Shown here piece by piece: positions 7,704-19,661 of a DNA stretch of 64,000 nucleotides (positions are counted from its first letter, which is position 1; the number at the start of each line of letters is the position of its first letter). Where the stretch lies: assembly GCA_022813675.1 (NCBI GenBank), contig CP063375.1, positions 1,190,001 to 1,254,000 on the forward strand. The letters run 5' to 3'. The notes beneath the pieces were generated by a model, which saw only the letters and a list, made by a program, of their open reading frames with translations, was not told the DNA's origin and ran no database searches. This DNA comes from Deferribacteraceae bacterium V6Fe1 (GTDB taxonomy: Bacteria > Chrysiogenota > Deferribacteres > Deferribacterales > Deferrivibrionaceae). A program made the translations under genes and the position numbers.

Positions 7704-9662
7704 TTATGCCTTAACACATGATAATAGTAAATGAGCATTTTTTTTTCTCTGGTAATCATACTCTTTTTTCAATTTATATAAGTTTGATTTAGGATTGTTT
7801 ATTTCGTCTCTACTTATGGAATAGTGCTCTCGAATAAAATTATTAACAATCTCATTTTTTGTATATTTAGTGATATTAGAAAAATCATTAGCCTTGATAA
7901 CTTCTAAAGCTTTTATTTGTTGTTTGGTAGTCAAATTATTAAAATCATCCCACCATTTTTTAGTAAATCCAATTTCTTCAAAAAAATACCGGTGCAGTAT
8001 ATATGTTTCAGGCATTAATAATATTTTGTTATATTCATTTATATCTTTGCCAAAAGCTTTATGAAAAAAACTTATACCTGTCCCAATTTTTCCTTTAGTA
8101 GCATTCAAAATAGTTTGAATTGCTCTGATATACTTTCTACTCCAATGTTCTCCTATGTAATCACGATTAAGATATTTTTCTCCACTAATTGGATGATACT
8201 TCATCGGGAAAGAATAAATATTTATATTTAACTCTTCTGCTAACATAACGTTTATTTTAATTCTCTCATAAAGGTCTTCTGGTTTATCTTTTTCGTTGTA
8301 TAATAGATAATTTGAAAGGTTTCTAATATTATATTTTGCAGCTAACCTAATAGCATTCACATAAATATCTTTATAATCTAAGCTGTCAAATGCAATTCTT
8401 AATGGCCTTATGGGGATTTCACTCAATAGCCTCATTTTTTCTTCATTCAATAGCCTTGCATCTACTCCTTGGTTAAAATCCACATATCGTGTTTTAGGTG
8501 TTTTATTACGATATTCATTAAAAGTATCTTTAATTTCTGGATAAATCTTTAAAATTGAGTCTTTAGTTGCACTTTCAATATTAAGTAAATCATTTTCTTT
8601 TAAGAGCGAATAGAGGTCTTGTTGCTTTTGCCCTTTTAATCTTTTTAATAAATACTGAAGTAACTCAAAACTTTTTTTAATATAGGCTTGGTCATTAACT
8701 GATTTTTTTAAATTATTTATGGCAATATCTAAATAATTTGGTTCTACAAATTTAGCACCAATAATAAAACCACTTTCTTTGATTTCTTCAATAATCTTAG
8801 GAAATTCTTTTGAGGCCAAAACATTATTGTCAAGTAACAATAGATTCCTTTGGTCTCCATATTTTTCCTTAATAGCTTCAATTTTATCTTTTAATGAAAT
8901 ATAAGAATTAAATTTTGGTTCAATTTTCCATACAGCACAAAATGAACATTTTCTAATACATCCTCTTGTCATATAAGCGTAATATGCATTGCTTTCAGGA
9001 TATTTATAATCTGTTTCATCTAAGATAGAATAATCAAGAGGCAATTGGTCTATTATAATATTGTTGTTGTCGAAAACACCGGGTTTATCTAAGAGCCCTT
9101 TGTGTGGCTTAATGCCAGTTTCTTTTTCTAAATCATCAGAAAGAACAGTTGCCATTACTCCGCCTATTTTTATATCATCTAATTTTTTTACTAAAACTTT
9201 AGCATCATTTATTGTTTTAACAGTAATTTCCCAATAAAATGTAAATAAAGTTGTTATATAAATTCTATCGAAATAAATGTCCCCAATATATTTTTTTCCC
9301 CGATAGTATTCAGAAAAATATTTAAGCCAAACTTCTATTAATGTGCCATCGCCATCATTTTTTTCATCTTGTGTAAACTCAATAATTTCGTTTAATATTT
9401 TAGAATTATGTGTAATTATATATTTTTTTATTAAGCTTTTGATTATATACCATCTAATATTAGGAGCTATTTCTTTTAGTTTATTTAAGCAGTTTTTAAG
9501 AACAAAGCTAATAATTAATTCGCTTATATTACCTTTGTGAAAAATAATATCATCACCCATCATTCGATGGTAGGTTGATATTTTCATCAAACCTATTGGA
9601 GGATATTTATTTTTGTAGTTTGGTTCCAATAAGAGAACTTTTTTCTTTCCTACTTTATCCAT
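7704..9662 (-). CDS. radical SAM protein with N-terminal B12-binding-like region
   Basis: A 652-residue radical SAM enzyme of unknown reaction. The cluster motif is Cys235-x3-Cys239-x2-Cys242 in YMTRGCIRKCSFCAVWK. The N-terminus (KKVLLLEPNYKNKYPPIGL) resembles the first strand and loop of cobalamin-binding domains fused to radical SAM enzymes, but I see no DxHxxG cobalamin ligand motif, so B12 use is doubtful. Around 300 residues follow the SAM barrel without a recognised fold. It is the last gene of the island operon, 4 bases after the GHKL ATPase gene. A radical SAM enzyme in a DNA-processing operon could modify nucleic acid, protein or a small molecule; the sequence does not say which. Confidence 0.85.
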   Translation of the reverse strand: MDKVGKKKVLLLEPNYKNKYPPIGLMKISTYHRMMGDDIIFHKGNISELIISFVLKNCLNKLKEIAPNIRWYIIKSLIKKYIITHNSKILNEIIEFTQDEKNDGDGTLIEVWLKYFSEYYRGKKYIGDIYFDRIYITTLFTFYWEITVKTINDAKVLVKKLDDIKIGGVMATVLSDDLEKETGIKPHKGLLDKPGVFDNNNIIIDQLPLDYSILDETDYKYPESNAYYAYMTRGCIRKCSFCAVWKIEPKFNSYISLKDKIEAIKEKYGDQRNLLLLDNNVLASKEFPKIIEEIKESGFIIGAKFVEPNYLDIAINNLKKSVNDQAYIKKSFELLQYLLKRLKGQKQQDLYSLLKENDLLNIESATKDSILKIYPEIKDTFNEYRNKTPKTRYVDFNQGVDARLLNEEKMRLLSEIPIRPLRIAFDSLDYKDIYVNAIRLAAKYNIRNLSNYLLYNEKDKPEDLYERIKINVMLAEELNINIYSFPMKYHPISGEKYLNRDYIGEHWSRKYIRAIQTILNATKGKIGTGISFFHKAFGKDINEYNKILLMPETYILHRYFFEEIGFTKKWWDDFNNLTTKQQIKALEVIKANDFSNITKYTKNEIVNNFIREHYSISRDEINNPKSNLYKLKKEYDYQRKKNAHLLLSCVKA

Positions 9663-9666
9663 CTTA

Positions 9667-11229
9667 TTATTTTTTTAATTCTTCAATTATTTTTTGTTTA
9701 ACAGTTTCCGATAAATCTTTTGGTAATACATTATCAATTATAGATAGGATTTTACTAATTAATTTTCTTTCTGAGCGATTATACTGAGGTAAGTTATCTG
9801 TTAATAATTTTGGCTTCTCATTATTTTTTGGCAGAATTTCTTCTTCAATAGACAAGTTGTCATCTATACCTTCTGTCAGTTTATTTATAAGCTTAGTTTT
9901 TACGTTATCAGATTTAGCTTTAGTTTTTATTTTTTCTATTTTCTTTGCTGCAAACTCAGCTTTTACTTTTACTTTCTGAATTTTATCCTCATATTCTTCT
10001 TGTTCCTCTGGCTTAGTGAAACCCTTTTTAGACTTGTCAGCATACTCTTTTACTAAATTAGCAATTTCTTCTATCCTTTTCTTTTCATTCCTTATTTGAG
10101 AAGAGACGTGGTATATTTCGTGAAGGTGCTTAAATTTATTTTTCAAGTTCTTTTCAAAAAGAGTCAAAACATTATTTTCAGTAAAATAATCTCTTCTTGC
10201 ATTGGGTATTAAGTTTGGGCTCATAGCGTGAACTTCCCCAAAAAAGTAAAACGTTCCTCTGGATTCTTTAAAAAGTCGTCCTAATTGTCTGTCATCTCCT
10301 ATTTGAATATTTCCTTTTCTCAGTCTTATACCTCTTGCTATGTTTACTGATGGTATTTGCTTTAAAAAACTTGAAATACTGTACCATCCCCAGCATAATA
10401 CTTGTTCATCTTTATCTTTTATATCAAAAAACTCAATATCAAAAATATCATCTATCCTTTTTTTATTGTGCTTTTCTCCTTCGTATATTGCCACAGTGTA
10501 CGCTTTAAATATCTGCTCAGTATTTATATAAATATTGTATTCGTCAATTGTAAAATTATATTCTTTTGCCTTGTCATAAATTTTACTAGTAAATATAAAT
10601 CCTTTTTTATAAGGAACTGGTGCTACCATTGAAAGATATTCATAGACTTCATCTTTATCTAAAAGATTCTCATTTGATACATTTTCCAAAACTACCTTGA
10701 AATATCTTTCATCCTTTATTGCAGGTTCAGTTTCAAGGGATGTCACTTCATCAATAACATATGCAGCATCTTCAATTTTATCTCTATTGTTTATAATTTT
10801 TTTTAATTTATTCGCATCCCATATTAGAGTAGATTTTATTTCCTCACCATAATAACTTGTTTCAAATATCAATTTGTCACAATATGCAAGTCCCCCAAGT
10901 CGTCCAATACCTCTAAATCCTTTATGTTTTTTTCTATCCTTTACACCTTGAGCAATATTTTTTAAAACAAATAAAATCTTGTCTGACGGAACTCCCGTTC
11001 CATTATCCATAATAGTTATCTTTCTTTCATCTTTATCAATTGTAATTTCTATTTTGCAATCGTTTTTGTCTTTTATCAAACCTTTTTCTAAAGCAATATC
11101 AATTTGGTCAGCAGAATTTTGAATATATTCCCTATAAATAAACTTTGGGTCATCATACATTGCCAATGTTAACGATTCAATAACATCTTTTCCTATTTTA
11201 GTTTTTTCTTCAATCATTGTTCTATCCAT
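9667..11229 (-). CDS. HSP90/MORC-like GHKL ATPase
   Basis: A 520-residue protein with an N-terminal Bergerat-fold ATPase of the HSP90/MutL/MORC class. The N-box is REYIQNSADQID (Glu34, Asn38, Asp41), the G1 box DNGTGV (Asp75, Gly77, Gly79), and the lid motif GFRGIGRLGG (from Gly104). A middle domain follows (about 200-380). Residues about 390-450 form a lysine/glutamate-rich coiled coil, and there is a basic C-terminal tail. HSP90 proper (HtpG) is longer and lacks this coiled coil. Prokaryotic MORC-like ATPases are known from restriction-type operons. It overlaps the upstream HerA-like gene by 8 bases and is 4 bases from the radical SAM gene. The start could also be Met5. Confidence 0.8.
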   Translation of the reverse strand: MDRTMIEEKTKIGKDVIESLTLAMYDDPKFIYREYIQNSADQIDIALEKGLIKDKNDCKIEITIDKDERKITIMDNGTGVPSDKILFVLKNIAQGVKDRKKHKGFRGIGRLGGLAYCDKLIFETSYYGEEIKSTLIWDANKLKKIINNRDKIEDAAYVIDEVTSLETEPAIKDERYFKVVLENVSNENLLDKDEVYEYLSMVAPVPYKKGFIFTSKIYDKAKEYNFTIDEYNIYINTEQIFKAYTVAIYEGEKHNKKRIDDIFDIEFFDIKDKDEQVLCWGWYSISSFLKQIPSVNIARGIRLRKGNIQIGDDRQLGRLFKESRGTFYFFGEVHAMSPNLIPNARRDYFTENNVLTLFEKNLKNKFKHLHEIYHVSSQIRNEKKRIEEIANLVKEYADKSKKGFTKPEEQEEYEDKIQKVKVKAEFAAKKIEKIKTKAKSDNVKTKLINKLTEGIDDNLSIEEEILPKNNEKPKLLTDNLPQYNRSERKLISKILSIIDNVLPKDLSETVKQKIIEELKK

Positions 11230-12904
11230 TTGGAAACTGCCTATACAATGGTTTAGGAAATCTAATATTTAATAATGAGCGAAAAACTGGATGTTCTAGA
11301 ATATACTCCCCGGGAGATAACCGTGTCATCATATTTTTATATACCTCAGGAATAAATCCGTAATCACTTTTCGATATCTCTATTGCATTAGTCCTGCCAT
11401 AAGCGTGAGTTGAACAATTACCTTTAACTCTATCATGAATAGCACTTTTAAACTGTTCTACTGAAAAAAGAATTATTCCTAGAGAACGGCCTCTTTCTGC
11501 AATATCTAAAATTTGCCTTAGTATAGGCGAGTTTTTGGGAACATCTTTTGAAGCGTACTTATTTAGCTCGTCAATAAAAATAATAACCTTTGAAGGAATG
11601 TCTTTTTCATCTCTATTATCATTTTGTCCTAACTTTAAATCATAAATTGCTCGTACCACATCTCCAAAAACAAATGCTTGAGTATCTTGGTCTAATTTTG
11701 CGATATCAATAACATAAACTTCATTCTTTTTTATATTTGATACAGCATCCTGTAACCTAACTTCATTTTTTTCTGGAATAACGGCTTTTTGGAATATCGG
11801 GTGTGATAAAGATTTACTAATAATTCTTTTAAATTTACGCCAACTCATTACAGAAATATCTTTATCAGAGTCTTTTCTACCTGATTGTGTATATTCTGAA
11901 ACTGTTTTTTTTAAGGTGTCCCAACAATCAATATCACCGAACTTTCCATTTCCATTAATAATAAAATTTACAATTGATTCCATCGTACCTGATGAATCTT
12001 CTATATTCGTGAATAACAAATCAAGGTTGTTTTTATCTTCCTCAAAAATATATTTATATTTAAATGCCTTATTATTATCAATTTGTGCTTCTATATCATT
12101 TTCATCACCATAACTGAAAGTTTTAGTTTTAGAAGATGAAATGTCGGAATAAGGATAAAAATATTTAACATTTTCAAAAGGCTGTGTGTCTAAGCCGAGT
12201 ATTTCTTTGTATATTTTTCTATCTTCTTCATTTAGGTTTTTGTTGTGCTCATCAATTGCCAAAAGGTCTCTGCCCTTTACATTGAATACTACAAATGCAA
12301 CAGAATTATCATTACCAGCATCTTGTTTACTCCCATACTTTTCTTGAATAGCCCTTAATAGAAACATTGAATATGATGTTTTAGCAGCTAATCCTGATAT
12401 GCCAGAAATATTAAGATGAGCTCCCTCCGGTCCAATTAAGAATTGAGCATTAAAATTAACAGGTAAAATCTTCTTGTCTTCATCCCTATACATTTCAATA
12501 TAACCACAAGGCATCGGATTTTTAACTTTATCTAAGCCAAGAGCTTGCAATATTTCGTCAGAATCTGCCAAACTAACTTTGCTTCCGTCCAAAACAGGCG
12601 TATATATATTAGAGTTATTGCCAACAACTTTAGCTTTTACATAATTCATCCCAATTCTGTTTGTATATTGTTCTACCTCCACATCACCAAAATCACTTGA
12701 TATAAAGTTGCTTAAATAGCTAGACGAATCTGTAATATGAGATATGGCCTCTATAACACCATACGTTATCGAGTTGTCAATATGCTCTACTTTAACAACA
12801 TCAAATGGATTAAGAATCCTTTGTTTATTTGTCCAAAAATAAAAAACATCGATGGTTGTTGGTGCTTTTTCTGTTGCAGCAACTTTACCAATTATTTTGC
12901 TCAT
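11222..12904 (-). CDS. HerA-like (FtsK/HerA) ATPase with degenerate Walker A
   Basis: A 560-residue protein. An N-terminal beta-barrel (HAS-like) domain lies at about residues 1-110, starting MSKIIGKVAATEKAPTTIDV and carrying NPFDVVKVEH. A P-loop ATPase of the HerA type follows. The Walker A region is NISGISGLAAKTSYSMFLL (Lys175, Thr176); the glycine normally just before the lysine is Ala174. Walker B is KVIIFIDELNKYA, and a conserved RGRSLGIILFSVEQ segment follows. HerA hexamers translocate DNA with NurA nuclease, and a NurA-like gene is directly upstream (11-base gap). This fits a HerA-NurA pair. Whether the altered P-loop still hydrolyses ATP is open. Confidence 0.8.
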   Translation of the reverse strand: MSKIIGKVAATEKAPTTIDVFYFWTNKQRILNPFDVVKVEHIDNSITYGVIEAISHITDSSSYLSNFISSDFGDVEVEQYTNRIGMNYVKAKVVGNNSNIYTPVLDGSKVSLADSDEILQALGLDKVKNPMPCGYIEMYRDEDKKILPVNFNAQFLIGPEGAHLNISGISGLAAKTSYSMFLLRAIQEKYGSKQDAGNDNSVAFVVFNVKGRDLLAIDEHNKNLNEEDRKIYKEILGLDTQPFENVKYFYPYSDISSSKTKTFSYGDENDIEAQIDNNKAFKYKYIFEEDKNNLDLLFTNIEDSSGTMESIVNFIINGNGKFGDIDCWDTLKKTVSEYTQSGRKDSDKDISVMSWRKFKRIISKSLSHPIFQKAVIPEKNEVRLQDAVSNIKKNEVYVIDIAKLDQDTQAFVFGDVVRAIYDLKLGQNDNRDEKDIPSKVIIFIDELNKYASKDVPKNSPILRQILDIAERGRSLGIILFSVEQFKSAIHDRVKGNCSTHAYGRTNAIEISKSDYGFIPEVYKNMMTRLSPGEYILEHPVFRSLLNIRFPKPLYRQFPNG

Positions 12905-12915
12905 TTAAACCTCAC

Positions 12916-14053
12916 TTAAAATAAGTTTATAAAGTGGTAATCACTTAAATATTTGCTCTTTATATATTTTTCTGTCAAAAAAATGGGGTACAAGTGTTTT
13001 GCCCATCTACTATCATGCCCATAGCATACCGGACTTCTCTCATTTATTATATTAGCACTAATTAAATCAATTTCGTCAGAATCTAAGCCATCTTCATCTT
13101 CCTTTTCCCATACTAATATTTTTTCAACCTTTAATACACCGTCAAAAGGACTTAAAGTCTTTCTTATCCTAATATACCAAACTGCAAATTTAACACCTTG
13201 AATTCTTCCTGTTTCATACATAAAAGCTGGTGTTCTATGGAATGGACTTAAATCTGCAATTATTCTTGATATATTTTTATTATATGAAGATAAAGATTCT
13301 GGATTAAACATTTTAGATACACCAACCACACTTGCATAATTACTTTTAATTGATGAGATATTTTTTAAATCAGTTTTATCCCATTCATATTCTAATGAAC
13401 CATCTTTAAGTAAAAAAGTATTTTTACTTAATTTTTTTTGTCTAACTAATTCCTTAACAGTAAGTTTTTCAAGTTTAATCATCTCTTCTTGAATTTTTGA
13501 AACTCCCCTATCTTCATATCTTTCATTATCTTTAATAGCCGAAAAATTATAAGGAAGTATTTTTTCAAACTTTATACCTTGCTTCTTAAGTAATTCCTGT
13601 TCATTCAATCCTTTAAGTAAATCATTAAAAAATAAATCATCATTTCTGCCTGGATTTGCAACAGCAGGTAAACTTATAAATAGTGGATTATACAATTTAA
13701 TAGGTTTAAAAGAATCTTTACTTTCTCGATAACAAACACCAACACCAACTTGTCCAGCAATAACTGGATAAATTTTTTTTTGATAAGCTAAATCATCAAC
13801 CTTGTAAGTTCTTCTTGAACCATCAAGAAAATATTTAAATAAAGGTTCCTTTCCAGCAATTTTTTTAGCTAACCCTTCTAAAGATTTTGAATTTCTTAAA
13901 CTTTTATCTGTTTCACCTATTTTTTTTTACAAGAATATCTTGCTTATCTTCATATTCTAGTTTAGGAACTTCAATGTTTTCAATACAAAATTTATACGAT
14001 TTGTAACTTTTACCATTTGTTTCTTTTCCTATGTAGTCAAGTATTTTTTTCAT
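12916..14053 (-). CDS. NurA-like nuclease, reading frame broken in an A9 tract
   Basis: The gene is in two frames. The first starts at ATG 14053 (MKKILDYIGKE) and runs about 45 codons into nine A residues (coding strand; 13920-13928), where it ends at TGA. Reading with one A fewer continues without interruption into the frame 13695-12916 and gives about 378 residues. The restored protein has KYFLDGSRRTYKVDDLAYQ (NurA-type DGS metal motif), then YPVIAGQVGVGVCY, GVSKMF in the middle, and AVWYIRIRK with a late His region (GHDSRWAKHLYPIF). NurA is the 5'-3' nuclease partner of HerA, and a HerA-like gene follows by 11 bases. The frame break may be a reading error, decay, or transcriptional slippage. 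Confidence 0.7.
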
Positions 14054-14885: not shown

Positions 14886-15881
14886 ATGCGAAGAAATTTT
14901 ATCGGTGAAAAAGATTTAACAAGAAAGTCTGCAAGCTTTAATCTGGCAATGGCAGTTGTTAAAAGTGGTAATGAGGGGAGTATTAAAAAAACAGCACATG
15001 CAATAAAAGAGTTGGCTGAATTTGCTAAAAATGAATTTGGGATAAAAAATATTGTAAATCTTGATTCGGCACATATATCAGCCTTTGCGGAATATTTAAG
15101 AGATAGAGTTAATAATAATGAAATATCAACCGGACATACTTCAAATATTATTTCAAGTTTAAATACTATTTTTAACCATTTCGGTCGGGATGATTTAAGA
15201 CTATCAGCAAATCATGAAGGATTAAGTAGAGGTAAAAGATACGATAATACCGATAAAAGCATCTCAAATGAGACACATAACAATTTGGTCAATTTTCTAT
15301 CCGAAAAATACGTTCAAACAGGCGATACAAGATTTGAGGCGTTAAGGTTGCAAGTTGTCTTACAAAGAGAGATTGGATTAAGGTTTAAAGAGTCAGCACT
15401 TTTTAATGGTGATGGGGTTAATAAATCCAAGCTAATTGCAAATATAGAAAAAGGCACGAAAGGTGGGCAGATAAGAAATGTAACTCTTACAGAGAAGGCA
15501 TTAAATATTTTAGATGAAGTAAAGGACTTTAGAAAGGAATACAGATATTCTCATTCCCTTGTCCCTGACTCAATGTCTTTTAAAGATTGGCAGAACTTTG
15601 CCTATAACACTATAAAAAGTTTTAACAGTCATTCTGGTGAGAATTATCATTTTCATGGTGAAAGGCATCATTTTGCACAAGAGAGATATAAAGAGCTAAC
15701 TAATCTTGAGCCACCTGCGAGAGTAGGGTTGTCAAAAGAAGAATATTTAGAATATGCCACATCAGAGCTGAATATGACGTCAGATGAAGTAAAAAGCCTT
15801 ATTGTAGAGGCAAGATTAACCATTTCTGAAGAATTGGGTCATCACAGGCTTGAAATAACAAATTATTATTTGGGGAGGTAA
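14886..15881 (+). CDS. tyrosine recombinase, integrase-domain protein
   Basis: A 331-residue site-specific recombinase. An N-terminal SAM-like core-binding domain spans about residues 20-110. The catalytic domain carries the tyrosine recombinase set: Arg166 (REIGLRFKES), Lys192 (GTKGG), the His257-x-x-Arg260 box (HFHGERHHF), His319/His320 (ELGHHRLEITNYY) and Tyr327 or Tyr328 as nucleophile. It looks like the integrase-domain family found on conjugative elements and plasmids, not a P4-type integrase, so the island carries two unrelated recombinases. The ATG is preceded by GGGGGGTGAG. It is the first gene of a plus-strand set with the 108-residue protein and the AlpA-like regulator. Confidence 0.85.
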   Translation: MRRNFIGEKDLTRKSASFNLAMAVVKSGNEGSIKKTAHAIKELAEFAKNEFGIKNIVNLDSAHISAFAEYLRDRVNNNEISTGHTSNIISSLNTIFNHFGRDDLRLSANHEGLSRGKRYDNTDKSISNETHNNLVNFLSEKYVQTGDTRFEALRLQVVLQREIGLRFKESALFNGDGVNKSKLIANIEKGTKGGQIRNVTLTEKALNILDEVKDFRKEYRYSHSLVPDSMSFKDWQNFAYNTIKSFNSHSGENYHFHGERHHFAQERYKELTNLEPPARVGLSKEEYLEYATSELNMTSDEVKSLIVEARLTISEELGHHRLEITNYYLGR

Positions 15882-16295: not shown

Positions 16296-16559
16296 ATGAA
16301 AAATATCCAAGATGAAAAAAAGCTTTATGGCGCAAATATTGAAAATTATGTTGATGATTTTTATTTTGAGAAGGGCGATTTGTTGACTAAAGATGAGGTG
16401 TTAGAATTGCTAAAAATCAAGAAGTCTACCTTATATGACGGTATGAAAAAAGGTATTTATCCAAGACCGATAAATATCGGTGGTCGTAAATGGCTGCGTA
16501 AAGAAATTGTTAAAGTAATCAAAAATGCCATTAAGGATAGAAATAAGAAAGCCTCTTAA
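16296..16559 (+). CDS. AlpA-like helix-turn-helix regulator/excisionase
   Basis: An 87-residue protein with a MerR/AlpA-type winged helix-turn-helix: LLTKDEVLELLKIKKSTLYD, then GIYPRPINIGGRKWLRKEIV, the wing-and-arginine pattern of AlpA proteins. AlpA activates excision of the CP4-57 prophage, and small proteins of this kind commonly act as recombination directionality factors in P4-type islands. The ATG follows AGGGGGTG. The stop codon lies in the loop of the hairpin at 16548-16569. The P4-type integrase is encoded convergently beyond the inserted IS. Confidence 0.8.
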   Translation: MKNIQDEKKLYGANIENYVDDFYFEKGDLLTKDEVLELLKIKKSTLYDGMKKGIYPRPINIGGRKWLRKEIVKVIKNAIKDRNKKAS

Positions 16560-16639: not shown

Positions 16640-17857
16640 ATGTTTATCGACAAGGATGAAATAAGAAAATTGTTTAAAGAAGGTAAGCTTAATACCCAAG
16701 AAGATTTGCAATCGATATTATCTTCAATTATTAAGGATGTAGTAGAGACAATTTATGAGGGAGAATTAACAGAATTATTAGGTTATTCCCGTTATGACAA
16801 ATCATCCAAAGAAACAAACAATTCACGAAACGGTTACAGCAATAAGAAAGTAAAATCAAATTATGGAGAGATAGAATTATCGGTTCCAAGAGACCGTAAT
16901 GGAGAATATGATCCAAAAATAGTGAAAAACGTCAAACAGATATTACCGGTATAGAAGAACATATAATTTCGATGTATGCCAAAGGTATGACAACAAGAGA
17001 TATCCAGGCCCACATGGAATCTTTATACGGCCTTGAGTTTTCAGCTGAGGCAATCAGTAGGATTACAGATAAAGTTCTTGAAAGAGCAAAAGAGTGGCAA
17101 AATAGACCCTTAGAGCCAATTTATGCAATTGTATTCCTTGATGCATTATTTTACAAGATGCGACTTGATGGTGTTATAAAAACGTAGCAGTTTACGCAAT
17201 AATAGGCATTACTCTTGAAGGTAAAAAGAATGCCTTGGTATATGGATAATGGAGACTGAATCAGCGAAATTTTGGTTGTCAGTACTAAACGAACTTAAGA
17301 ACAGAGGTGTTGAAGATGTTCTTATATTCAGTATAGACGGTTTACCAGGTTTAAATGAAGCTATCAGGGCGGTATATCCAGAATCTGAAATTCAACGATG
17401 TATAGTTCATCAGGTAAGAAACTCTCTGAAGTTTGTATCTTATAAAGACAGGAAAGAATTAGCGAGGGGCTTAAAGGCCATTTATACATCTCCAACGGAA
17501 GAAACTGGAAGAATTGAATTAGATAGATTAAATGAAAAATGGGGAAAGAAGTATCCAAACGTAATAAAATCATGGGAAACCAATTGGTTGGAACTTTCAA
17601 CGTTATTTAAATATCCACCAGAAGTTAGGAAGCTTATTTATACTACTAATCCTATAGAGAGTTTTAATAGTAAATTGAAGAAGGTCACTAAAAATCGAGG
17701 GGTATTTCCTACAGAGGAATCATTGTTTAAATTGCTGTATTTAGCGATAAATGACATATCAAGTAAATGGAATGGCAGGATAAGGGATTGGTCAAAAATA
17801 TATCCGCAATTGTATATTTACTTTCAGGAAAGGATTGACAGGTTTACGAATGGTTAA
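16640..17857 (+). pseudogene. IS256-family (mutator-type) transposase, frameshifted
   Basis: The transposase is split into three open pieces (16640-16954, 16972-17187, 17249-17857) that join in order if three single bases are restored. One A is missing near 16925-16929 (five A where six restore KKRQTDITG). One A is missing near 17178-17182 (after DGVIK). One G is missing near 17236-17237 (before IWIMETESAK). The pieces contain the family pattern: SRNGYSNKKVKSNYGEIEL, VFLDALFYK and FSIDGLPG with the two Asp, and YTTNPIESFNSKLKK with the Glu. Restored length is about 405 residues, normal for the family. As read it cannot make active transposase. Confidence 0.88.
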
Positions 17858-17920: not shown

Positions 17921-19153
17921 TTATACATATACGATTTCTGTCATTTCAGATATTTTAAATTTGGTGCTCAACCTTTTTATAAATGGTTTGTCTGATTCTT
18001 TTAGTTCGTAAAGGTAATCAGCCCAGAATTGAAGCATTTCTTTTCTGGTTTCAATAAATTCGGCCTTATTATATGTGCCTCTTACTGTATTTTTGTCAAT
18101 ATGAGAAAGCTGTCTTTCAATCACAATAGAATCCCAACCCATTTCATGCAAAAATGTGCTTGCCGTATGTCTTACACTGTGGCTTACCATCTTGTCGCCA
18201 AAGCCTAATGATTTTATCGCCTTATTTAATGTGTTATCGCTCATAATTTTCCACCTGGTTTTAGTACGAAATGAAAAAACATATTTACAATCACCTGTTA
18301 TAGGCTTTAATTTTGTTAAGATTTGAATAACCTGTTTTGGTAAAGGTACAATATGTGCTCTCTTCATTTTCATTTTTTCCGCAGGTATATTCCATTCACA
18401 AGAATCAAAGTTAATCTCATCCCACTGCATAGTCCTTATATTGTAAGGTCTGACAAATGTAATAAGGGCTACTTTTAGTGCCTCCTTTACGATTATGTCT
18501 CCATTATAATTATCTATGGCGTTTAAAAGACTTTTTAATGTTTTTGGGTCGGAAATATATCTGTAATTTTTATTTTTACTTGATATAGTTACCCCCATTC
18601 CGGCAATTACAGCAGGAATAGGGTTATACCTGGTATAACCATTGGCAATTGCATAATTAAAAACACCATTAATTACTTGTTTGGCTTTATTACAAGTTTC
18701 GGGGATTTGTCGCTTTAAAATATCGCTAAGACATTTAATGATTTTTGGGCCTTTTATTTCGTTAATGCCGTATTTCCCGAGATAACCTTTAATATATGTA
18801 TTGTAGATATATTTTTTACGTTTTGCGGTATCATCCTTCCACCTGCTAAGATTAGCCTTATACCATTCTTCAAATAAATGGTCAAAGGTTGAACTTTTCC
18901 CTGTTGGCAACCCCTGTTTAACATTACTTATAAATTCTAAAGCTTGCTTTCTGGCTTCCGGAATTGCGACATACGGATACATGCCTAATGTTTTTGTAGT
19001 AGATTTGCCTTGTTCATTTGTGTAGCGTATCACCCAATATTTTTTTCCGTTTGGTCTTATCTCAAGAAAAAGGTTTTCTTGGATACTGATTCTGTAGAGC
19101 TTTTCTTTCGGAGATAACGACTCAAGATATTTATTAGTTATGGATTTGCTCAT
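17921..19153 (-). CDS. P4-type tyrosine integrase of the island
   Basis: A 410-residue site-specific integrase. An N-terminal arm-binding domain (about residues 1-85: ENLFLEIRPNGKKYWVIRY, KTLGMYPYVAIPEARKQA) is the DUF4102 type typical of P4-like integrases. A core-binding domain (about 90-185) and a catalytic domain follow, with Arg235 (ITFVRPYNIR), Lys264 region (KMKRAHIVPLP), His325-x-x-Arg328 (SHSVRHTAS), His351 (LSHID) and Tyr361 as nucleophile. It lies 277 bases from the 3' end of tRNA-Leu and is transcribed away from it, the usual position for an integrase that uses the tRNA end as attachment site. Confidence 0.92.
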   Translation of the reverse strand: MSKSITNKYLESLSPKEKLYRISIQENLFLEIRPNGKKYWVIRYTNEQGKSTTKTLGMYPYVAIPEARKQALEFISNVKQGLPTGKSSTFDHLFEEWYKANLSRWKDDTAKRKKYIYNTYIKGYLGKYGINEIKGPKIIKCLSDILKRQIPETCNKAKQVINGVFNYAIANGYTRYNPIPAVIAGMGVTISSKNKNYRYISDPKTLKSLLNAIDNYNGDIIVKEALKVALITFVRPYNIRTMQWDEINFDSCEWNIPAEKMKMKRAHIVPLPKQVIQILTKLKPITGDCKYVFSFRTKTRWKIMSDNTLNKAIKSLGFGDKMVSHSVRHTASTFLHEMGWDSIVIERQLSHIDKNTVRGTYNKAEFIETRKEMLQFWADYLYELKESDKPFIKRLSTKFKISEMTEIVYV

Positions 19154-19421: not shown

Positions 19422-19444
19422 ATAAAAAAATGCCTGAGGGGGGA
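19422..19444 (+). repeat. putative attR core at the tRNA-Leu 3' end
   Basis: Covers the last 14 bases of tRNA-Leu and the A-run beyond it. It is shared with 7371-7393 apart from two one-base indels. Integration here would leave the tRNA intact, as is usual for P4-type islands. Confidence 0.5.
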
Positions 19445-19516
19445 CTCGAACCCCCACAGGATATTACTCCCACAGGATCCTTAGTCCTGCGTGTCTACCA
19501 GTTCCACCACCCAGGC
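19431..19516 (-). tRNA. tRNA-Leu (anticodon AAG)
   Basis: 86 bases on the minus strand with a long variable arm, as in class II tRNAs. The acceptor pairs GCCTGGG with CTCAGGC and has A73; the T-arm is GGGGG-TTCGAGT-CCCCC. The anticodon stem CAGGA/TCCTG is perfect and encloses the loop CTAAGGA, placing AAG at 34-36. That is unusual, as bacteria normally use GAG for this box. CCA is not encoded. Its 3' end is the presumed attachment site of the island. Confidence 0.93.
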
Positions 19517-19661
19517 AACAACTTATTTTCAAGTGAATGGTCTTATATTTAAATTACGTTGATTTGTCAAGAAAAAACTATGTGGCATCGGCATAGTTTT
19601 TTATAAATGGAGTAAAGCAACTTTTTAAATAAAGTATTATGGAATACTTTAGTATATACTG

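What the first reader, a model, noticed from the sequence alone, without database searches (positions are those of the whole stretch)
7704..14053. Uncharacterised four-gene island operon: NurA-like, HerA-like, GHKL ATPase, radical SAM
Four genes are packed on one strand with gaps of 11 bases, an 8-base overlap and 4 bases. They sit alone as cargo in a tRNA-Leu-associated island. Seen: a DGS-motif NurA-like nuclease, a FtsK/HerA ATPase, an HSP90/MORC-like ATPase and a 652-residue radical SAM protein. Known: HerA-NurA pairs process DNA ends, HerA-type ATPases partner nucleases in anti-phage systems, and prokaryotic MORC/MutL-like ATPases occur in restriction-like operons. Inference: this is a defence or DNA-modification system. 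I know of no named system with this exact set, and I cannot search.
Basis: partly seen in the sequence, partly recalled or inferred. Interest (0 to 1): 0.85.

Follow-up and report, generated by a model that had tools for sequence, protein, structure and literature searches.

The report
Modular radical-SAM DNA-defence operon
Four neighbouring genes (a DNA-cutting enzyme, a DNA motor, an HSP90-like switch and a radical-chemistry enzyme) travel together through many unrelated bacteria and most likely form an unnamed anti-virus system in which one radical enzyme serves several swappable DNA-attacking modules.

Summary
The four-gene operon is real: RSAM 7704-9662, GHKL 9667-11229, HerA 11222-12904, NurA 12916-14053, all on the minus strand. 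Correction: the NurA gene here is frameshifted at a run of nine A (window ~13920-13928). Eight would be in frame, and relatives are intact.

Fold and profile searches support NurA, HerA, an HSP90-type GHKL ATPase, and a radical SAM enzyme of the MgmA/TsrM architecture. A genome scan found 517 stretches encoding RSAM relatives. Among the 80 kept, 45 read strictly NurA-HerA-GHKL-RSAM and about 18 carry an extra module before the single RSAM. In the window's phylum the unit is patchy, and in one genus it is present or absent as exactly four genes between rpoC and uvrB.

RSAM is the backbone: GHKL-plus-effector modules (NurA-HerA; AAA15 with an NsnC-like protein; an unknown 330-residue protein; DndB/DpdB-like DGQHR) plug onto it. 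In a sister HerA clade, NurA-HerA sits with an Eco57I-type DNA N6-methylase.

Best reading: a mobile restriction-modification-like defence in which RSAM makes the self mark or signal and GHKL gates the effectors. Function is untested; no named system matches in the libraries and open-access papers searched.

The parts
12916..14053 (-). nurA-like nuclease gene, frameshifted: frame 1 14053-13913, frame 2 13926-12916 (A9 run at 13928-13920)
   Evidence: invariant catalytic-type residues D77, E195, D217, H353 (L017 numbering) all lie downstream of the break and are kept here
11222..12904 (-). HerA-like hexameric DNA translocase ATPase (560 aa; Walker A GISGLAAKT, Walker B FIDELN)
   Evidence: (7f6d HerA E 2e-51)
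9667..11229 (-). GHKL (HSP90/MutL/TopoVI-B-type) ATPase, 520 aa, N box REYIQNSAD, DNGTG, GFRGIGRLG
7704..9662 (-). radical SAM enzyme, 652 aa: N-terminal Rossmann (B12-binding-like, no DXHXXG) domain, radical SAM barrel C235-X3-C239-X2-C242, C-terminal helical part, two family-specific insertions
14886..15881 (+). tyrosine recombinase, divergently oriented next to the operon (island machinery)
   Evidence: Phage_integrase, weak
16296..16559 (+). AlpA-type excisionase/regulator
17921..19153 (-). P4-type integrase next to tRNA-Leu
19430..19517 (-). tRNA-Leu(aag), right edge of the island

Best explanation
A mobile, restriction-modification-like defence system built on a radical SAM backbone. The RSAM enzyme places a chemical mark (most likely a carbon-centred methylation or related change on a DNA base) or makes an equivalent licensing product. 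The GHKL ATPase acts as an ATP-driven clamp or switch that reads or loads the target and gates its cognate effector. In this operon the effector is a HerA ring that pumps DNA into the NurA nuclease, degrading DNA lacking the mark. Other loci plug other effector + GHKL modules onto the same RSAM. Shown: gene content, order, conserved active-site motifs, folds of NurA and RSAM, cross-phylum recurrence, module swapping, a methylase in place of GHKL-RSAM in a sister HerA clade. Inferred: defence, that DNA is the RSAM substrate, self/non-self logic, GHKL as gate. In this particular genome the NurA frameshift may leave the system inactive or dependent on slippage.
For: (1) Strict operon: gaps near zero in about 70 loci; 45 of 80 loci exactly NurA-HerA-GHKL-RSAM and about 18 more with an added module; Bacteroidota, Ignavibacteriota, Aminicenantes, Gastranaerophilales, Bacillota and others. 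(2) Gained or lost as one unit: in one genus rpoC-uvrB are 159 bp apart in G033 but hold only these four genes in G042; 4 of 51 genomes of the phylum carry it. (3) RSAM is the shared backbone: second modules appear scattered on the RSAM tree (6 changes for 6 rows, 9 for 11, close to shuffled labels), while each module has its own GHKL clade, with one RSAM per two-module operon. (4) DNA link of RSAM: in 12 of 12 plasmid records with RSAM the GHKL is present, with a DndB/DpdB-like DGQHR gene directly upstream in the five inspected; phage RSAM relatives lie near DNA methylases or ParB. (5) The sister HerA clade pairs NurA-HerA with an Eco57I-type N6-methylase in two independent loci. (6) RSAM fold neighbours are methylases MgmA and TsrM.
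Against: No DNA substrate is shown. RSAM lacks the DXHXXG cobalamin motif (TsrM also lacks it, from memory). Fold similarity to MgmA/TsrM is moderate (TM 0.3-0.5). The sampled neighbourhood gives only scattered matches to known defence families, many neighbours being metabolic, and there was no matched control. The methylase-containing loci number only two. The window's own NurA is frameshifted.
Confidence: 0.45

Rival explanations
1. Signal or chain-terminator defence: RSAM makes a modified nucleotide or other small molecule on infection (viperin-like logic, different enzyme), which GHKL proteins bind to switch on NurA-HerA and the other effectors.
For: One RSAM serves two or more GHKL-effector modules in one operon, as one cyclase can serve several effectors.
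Against: No viperin-type match in PADLOC and none in the PDB sequence search; effectors lack recognisable ligand-sensing domains other than GHKL; DGQHR and DNA-methylase partners point to DNA.
Confidence: 0.2
2. Protein-modification switch: RSAM modifies its GHKL or other partner protein, arming or silencing the effector.
For: GHKL is the most constant partner (12 of 12 viral contigs found through GHKL hold RSAM); best fold match MgmA methylates a protein glutamine.
Against: A phage keeps NurA-HerA-RSAM without GHKL, and one viral contig has DGQHR-RSAM without GHKL; GHKL clades are diverse, so no common modified site is evident.
Confidence: 0.15
3. DNA-repair or mobile-element maintenance module rather than defence, using HerA-NurA end processing as in archaea and Deinococcus.
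For: HerA-NurA are end-resection enzymes elsewhere (established knowledge); the genes ride on integrative elements and a phage.
Against: Patchy present/absent distribution; this HerA clade is separate from the HerA-NurA found in ordinary chromosomal contexts, support 98/96, and those never carried GHKL-RSAM within 6 kb; swapping of nuclease-type modules.
Confidence: 0.15

Closest known systems
HerA-NurA DNA end-resection complex (archaea; D. radiodurans, PDB 7f6d)
   Same: same two protein families, order NurA-HerA, conserved nuclease and Walker residues
   Different: separate HerA clade; coupled to GHKL and RSAM; sporadic and mobile instead of core repair
Dpd / Dnd DNA-modification defence (DpdB, DndB)
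   Same: alphaproteobacterial variant carries a DpdB/DndB-family DGQHR protein directly upstream of RSAM-GHKL
   Different: no DpdA TGT, no DndC/D/E detected in the genes scanned; RSAM is not part of those systems
Menshen (NsnABC)
   Same: one plug-in module has an NsnB-like AAA15 ATPase (1.5e-61) and a weakly NsnC-like protein (2.7e-6)
   Different: that module is absent from the window; where present it goes with GHKL and RSAM, with no NsnA match
HerA-nuclease and 'HerA/FtsK capture' defence systems (DndH, BREX-related capture; PMC10853773, PMC12839542)
   Same: HerA translocase as a DNA-handling part of a defence operon
   Different: those papers do not mention NurA, GHKL or a radical SAM partner of HerA
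phrog_9298 phage radical SAM proteins
   Same: RSAM core domain homologous (E 5e-39)
   Different: phage proteins are about 305 aa, lack the two insertions and the operon partners
prokaryotic viperin (pVip)
   Same: radical SAM enzyme in a suspected antiviral setting
   Different: no match to viperin models in PADLOC; different N-terminal domain and partners

Membership tests
HerA-NurA pair | HerA-type ATPase with Walker A/B next to NurA nuclease | tested here: met
HerA-NurA pair | membership in the HerA clade found in ordinary chromosomal contexts | tested here: not met
   separate clade, 98/96 support
HerA-NurA pair | DNA-end resection activity | not testable with these tools
   needs biochemistry
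Dpd/Dnd systems | DpdA, DndC, DndD or DndE in the operon | tested here: not met
   no PADLOC match in the window's four genes; none among the variant-locus genes scanned
Dpd/Dnd systems | DndB/DpdB (DGQHR) protein | tested here: not met
   not in the window operon; present only in the plasmid/viral variant
Menshen | NsnA-NsnB-NsnC | tested here: not met
   no Nsn match in the window genes; NsnB/NsnC-like genes only in some relatives, no NsnA match among genes scanned
Viperin | match to viperin models | tested here: not met
   PADLOC scan of RSAM
MORC/MutL-type GHKL in R-M operons | GHKL ATPase with intact N, G1, G2 boxes | tested here: met
   closest solved relatives are HSP90/HtpG, not MORC
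Cobalamin-dependent radical SAM methylases | N-terminal B12-type Rossmann domain + radical SAM barrel | tested here: met
   fold matches MgmA, TsrM
Cobalamin-dependent radical SAM methylases | DXHXXG cobalamin motif | tested here: not met
   0 of 101 sequences
Restriction-modification-like system | mark on self DNA made by one component and read by the nuclease | not testable with these tools
   only context: methylase present in sister clade

The most novel reading that the evidence does not exclude
A new class of defence in which a radical SAM enzyme writes a previously unknown radical-chemistry DNA base modification as the self mark, read by GHKL-gated, interchangeable effector modules (HerA-NurA, SMC-like ATPase, PIN, HNH, unknown).
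Probability: 0.3. Interest if true: 0.92.

Novelty: new variant of a known kind. Interest (0 to 1): 0.74.

Why it matters
If right, radical SAM chemistry joins DNA-targeting immunity, possibly with a new DNA base modification, and one core enzyme is shown to license several exchangeable effector modules, each with its own HSP90-like switch. A scan of about 85,000 species genomes gave 517 stretches encoding RSAM relatives, so the family is common yet unnamed in the libraries searched. The hypothesis is directly testable by nucleoside mass spectrometry and phage plating with isolates already in culture collections.

Tried and rejected
Viperin: rejected, no PADLOC match. Menshen, Dpd, Dnd, MADS membership: rejected for the window operon. 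Chance neighbours: rejected by recurrence. att repeat at tRNA-Leu: none of 12 bp or more found. Programmed or conserved frameshift in NurA: not supported, the A run is absent in the closest relatives. Defence-island enrichment of neighbours: scattered PADLOC hits (type I specificity, RT, DpdF, orphan methylase) without a control set, so treated as weak. The 330-residue F0 and NsnC-like F3 proteins stayed unidentified. Searching whole phyla centred on a locus was not possible. The paper library holds no bioRxiv collection, so a recent preprint could exist.

Full report
Observation. The four genes lie exactly where reported and are tightly packed (11-base gap, 8-base overlap, 4-base gap). The NurA gene is broken: the frame from ATG 14053 ends at 13913, and the remaining 336 codons are in another frame. 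The break is at nine A; eight would be in frame. All catalytic-type residues are downstream and kept. The nearest relative, L017 (80% nucleotide identity over 6.3 kb), and the other relatives examined are intact and lack the run. So the family is functional in principle, but this copy is a pseudogene, a slippage or phase-variable allele, or carries a sequencing error.

Parts. HerA: profile match to D. radiodurans HerA at 2e-51, Walker A and B in 73 of 73 relatives. NurA: no Pfam hit, but the model of L017 NurA (pLDDT 84) matches only NurA structures with confidence (7f6d 5e-11, TM1739 1zup 4e-9; next come Argonautes at E above 0.01). GHKL: HATPase_c_3, closest solved relatives HtpG/HSP90. RSAM: Radical_SAM; the model (pLDDT 90) has as its closest folds MgmA, TsrM and AprD4; CX3CX2C in 100 of 101 relatives, cobalamin DXHXXG in none; its core is homologous to phage family phrog_9298.

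Recurrence. A genome scan with the RSAM alignment found 517 encoding stretches. Of the 80 kept (selected by similarity to the window RSAM, so biased), 45 are strictly NurA-HerA-GHKL-RSAM and about 18 more have the same genes with an inserted module; several others are cut by contig ends. Independent starting points agree: starting from GHKL in viral contigs, 12 of 12 carry RSAM; starting from HerA, 3 of 4 carry all four genes. A broad genome sample found by HerA shows RSAM with 7 of the 8 strongest hits (the eighth contig has HerA-GHKL and then looks rearranged), and neither GHKL nor RSAM near the more distant chromosomal HerA-NurA.

Mobility. In the window's phylum 4 of 51 genomes carry it. 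In one genus, G033 has rpoC and uvrB 159 bp apart, whereas G042 has exactly the four genes between them. In the window's genus the tRNA-Leu-flanked interval holds unrelated genes in the two other species.

Modularity. RSAM is constant; [effector + cognate GHKL] modules are exchanged: NurA-HerA-GHKL1, GHKL2-F0, F2 (AAA15, NsnB-like)-F3-GHKL3, DGQHR-RSAM-GHKL, and PIN-GHKL beside the last. GHKL2 and GHKL3 each come from a single side of the GHKL tree (two minus-strand rows, window and L015, were mislabelled there as following RSAM and belong to the NurA-HerA group). On the RSAM tree the extra modules are scattered almost as shuffled labels would be. In three loci an HNH nuclease takes the place right after HerA. 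Operons with two modules still have one RSAM.

Link to DNA modification. (a) On alphaproteobacterial plasmids RSAM sits between a DndB/DpdB-type DGQHR protein and GHKL in the five loci read; all 12 RSAM-bearing records also hold GHKL, though several are duplicates of one strain. (b) In the HerA clade sister to the RSAM-associated one, NurA-HerA sits beside an Eco57I-type N6-methylase (L157, L197; the methylases are 45% identical; HerA support 100/99 and 96/94). (c) Phage RSAM relatives sit near DNA methylases or a ParB protein in four of five phages looked at. None of these shows the reaction.

Mechanism. Best: RSAM makes a DNA mark (or equivalent licence), GHKL gates, HerA pumps DNA into NurA. 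Rivals: a nucleotide signal, a protein modification, a repair or element-maintenance role. Novelty: no model in the protein libraries and no open-access paper found describes the set; preprints and many subscription papers could not be searched. Known parts in an unrecorded, modular combination: a new variant of HerA-based and modification-linked defence, possibly a new class if the RSAM product is a new DNA base.

Noticed in passing
L008 10001-12759 (Marinitoga camini virus 1); L209: A phage, and a host genome carrying the same region, encode NurA-HerA with a convergent RSAM but no GHKL.
   Followed up: partly
L157 4361-12009; L197 1355-7512: NurA-HerA next to an Eco57I/N6-type DNA methylase, a probable unnamed restriction-modification variant.
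   Followed up: partly
L010 4785-16687; L151; L153: Rhizobial/Roseomonas plasmid loci with an SNF2 helicase, a ParB-like protein and a 140-residue protein beside DGQHR-RSAM-GHKL and PIN-GHKL; looks like a larger composite defence locus.
   Followed up: partly
L027 9024-10016 and relatives (family F0): Unknown ~330-residue protein with invariant YxGLP, AFQCR, NLDFC motifs, always beside its own GHKL clade; no match in Pfam, PADLOC, PHROGs or PDB sequences.
   Followed up: partly
L017 and L016: The closest copies (75% protein identity) are on short contigs binned as Woesearchaeota and Peptostreptococcaceae; misbinning or very recent transfer.
   Followed up: no
window 16640-17857: Mutator-family transposase in two fragments inside the island, probably a decayed insertion sequence.
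   Followed up: no
L052, L059, L060, L063, L074, L081: In gut Bacteroidales the operon is followed by a ~345-residue gene (F6), and in several of these loci a VirE/DUF3987-like gene (F10) lies further on, probably a recurrent integrative element.
   Followed up: no
L147 1969-5642 (Bacteroides phage LoVEphage): Small phage RSAM lies between a PAPS-reductase-like gene and Dam-type methylase pieces, hinting at a phage DNA-modification cluster.
   Followed up: no
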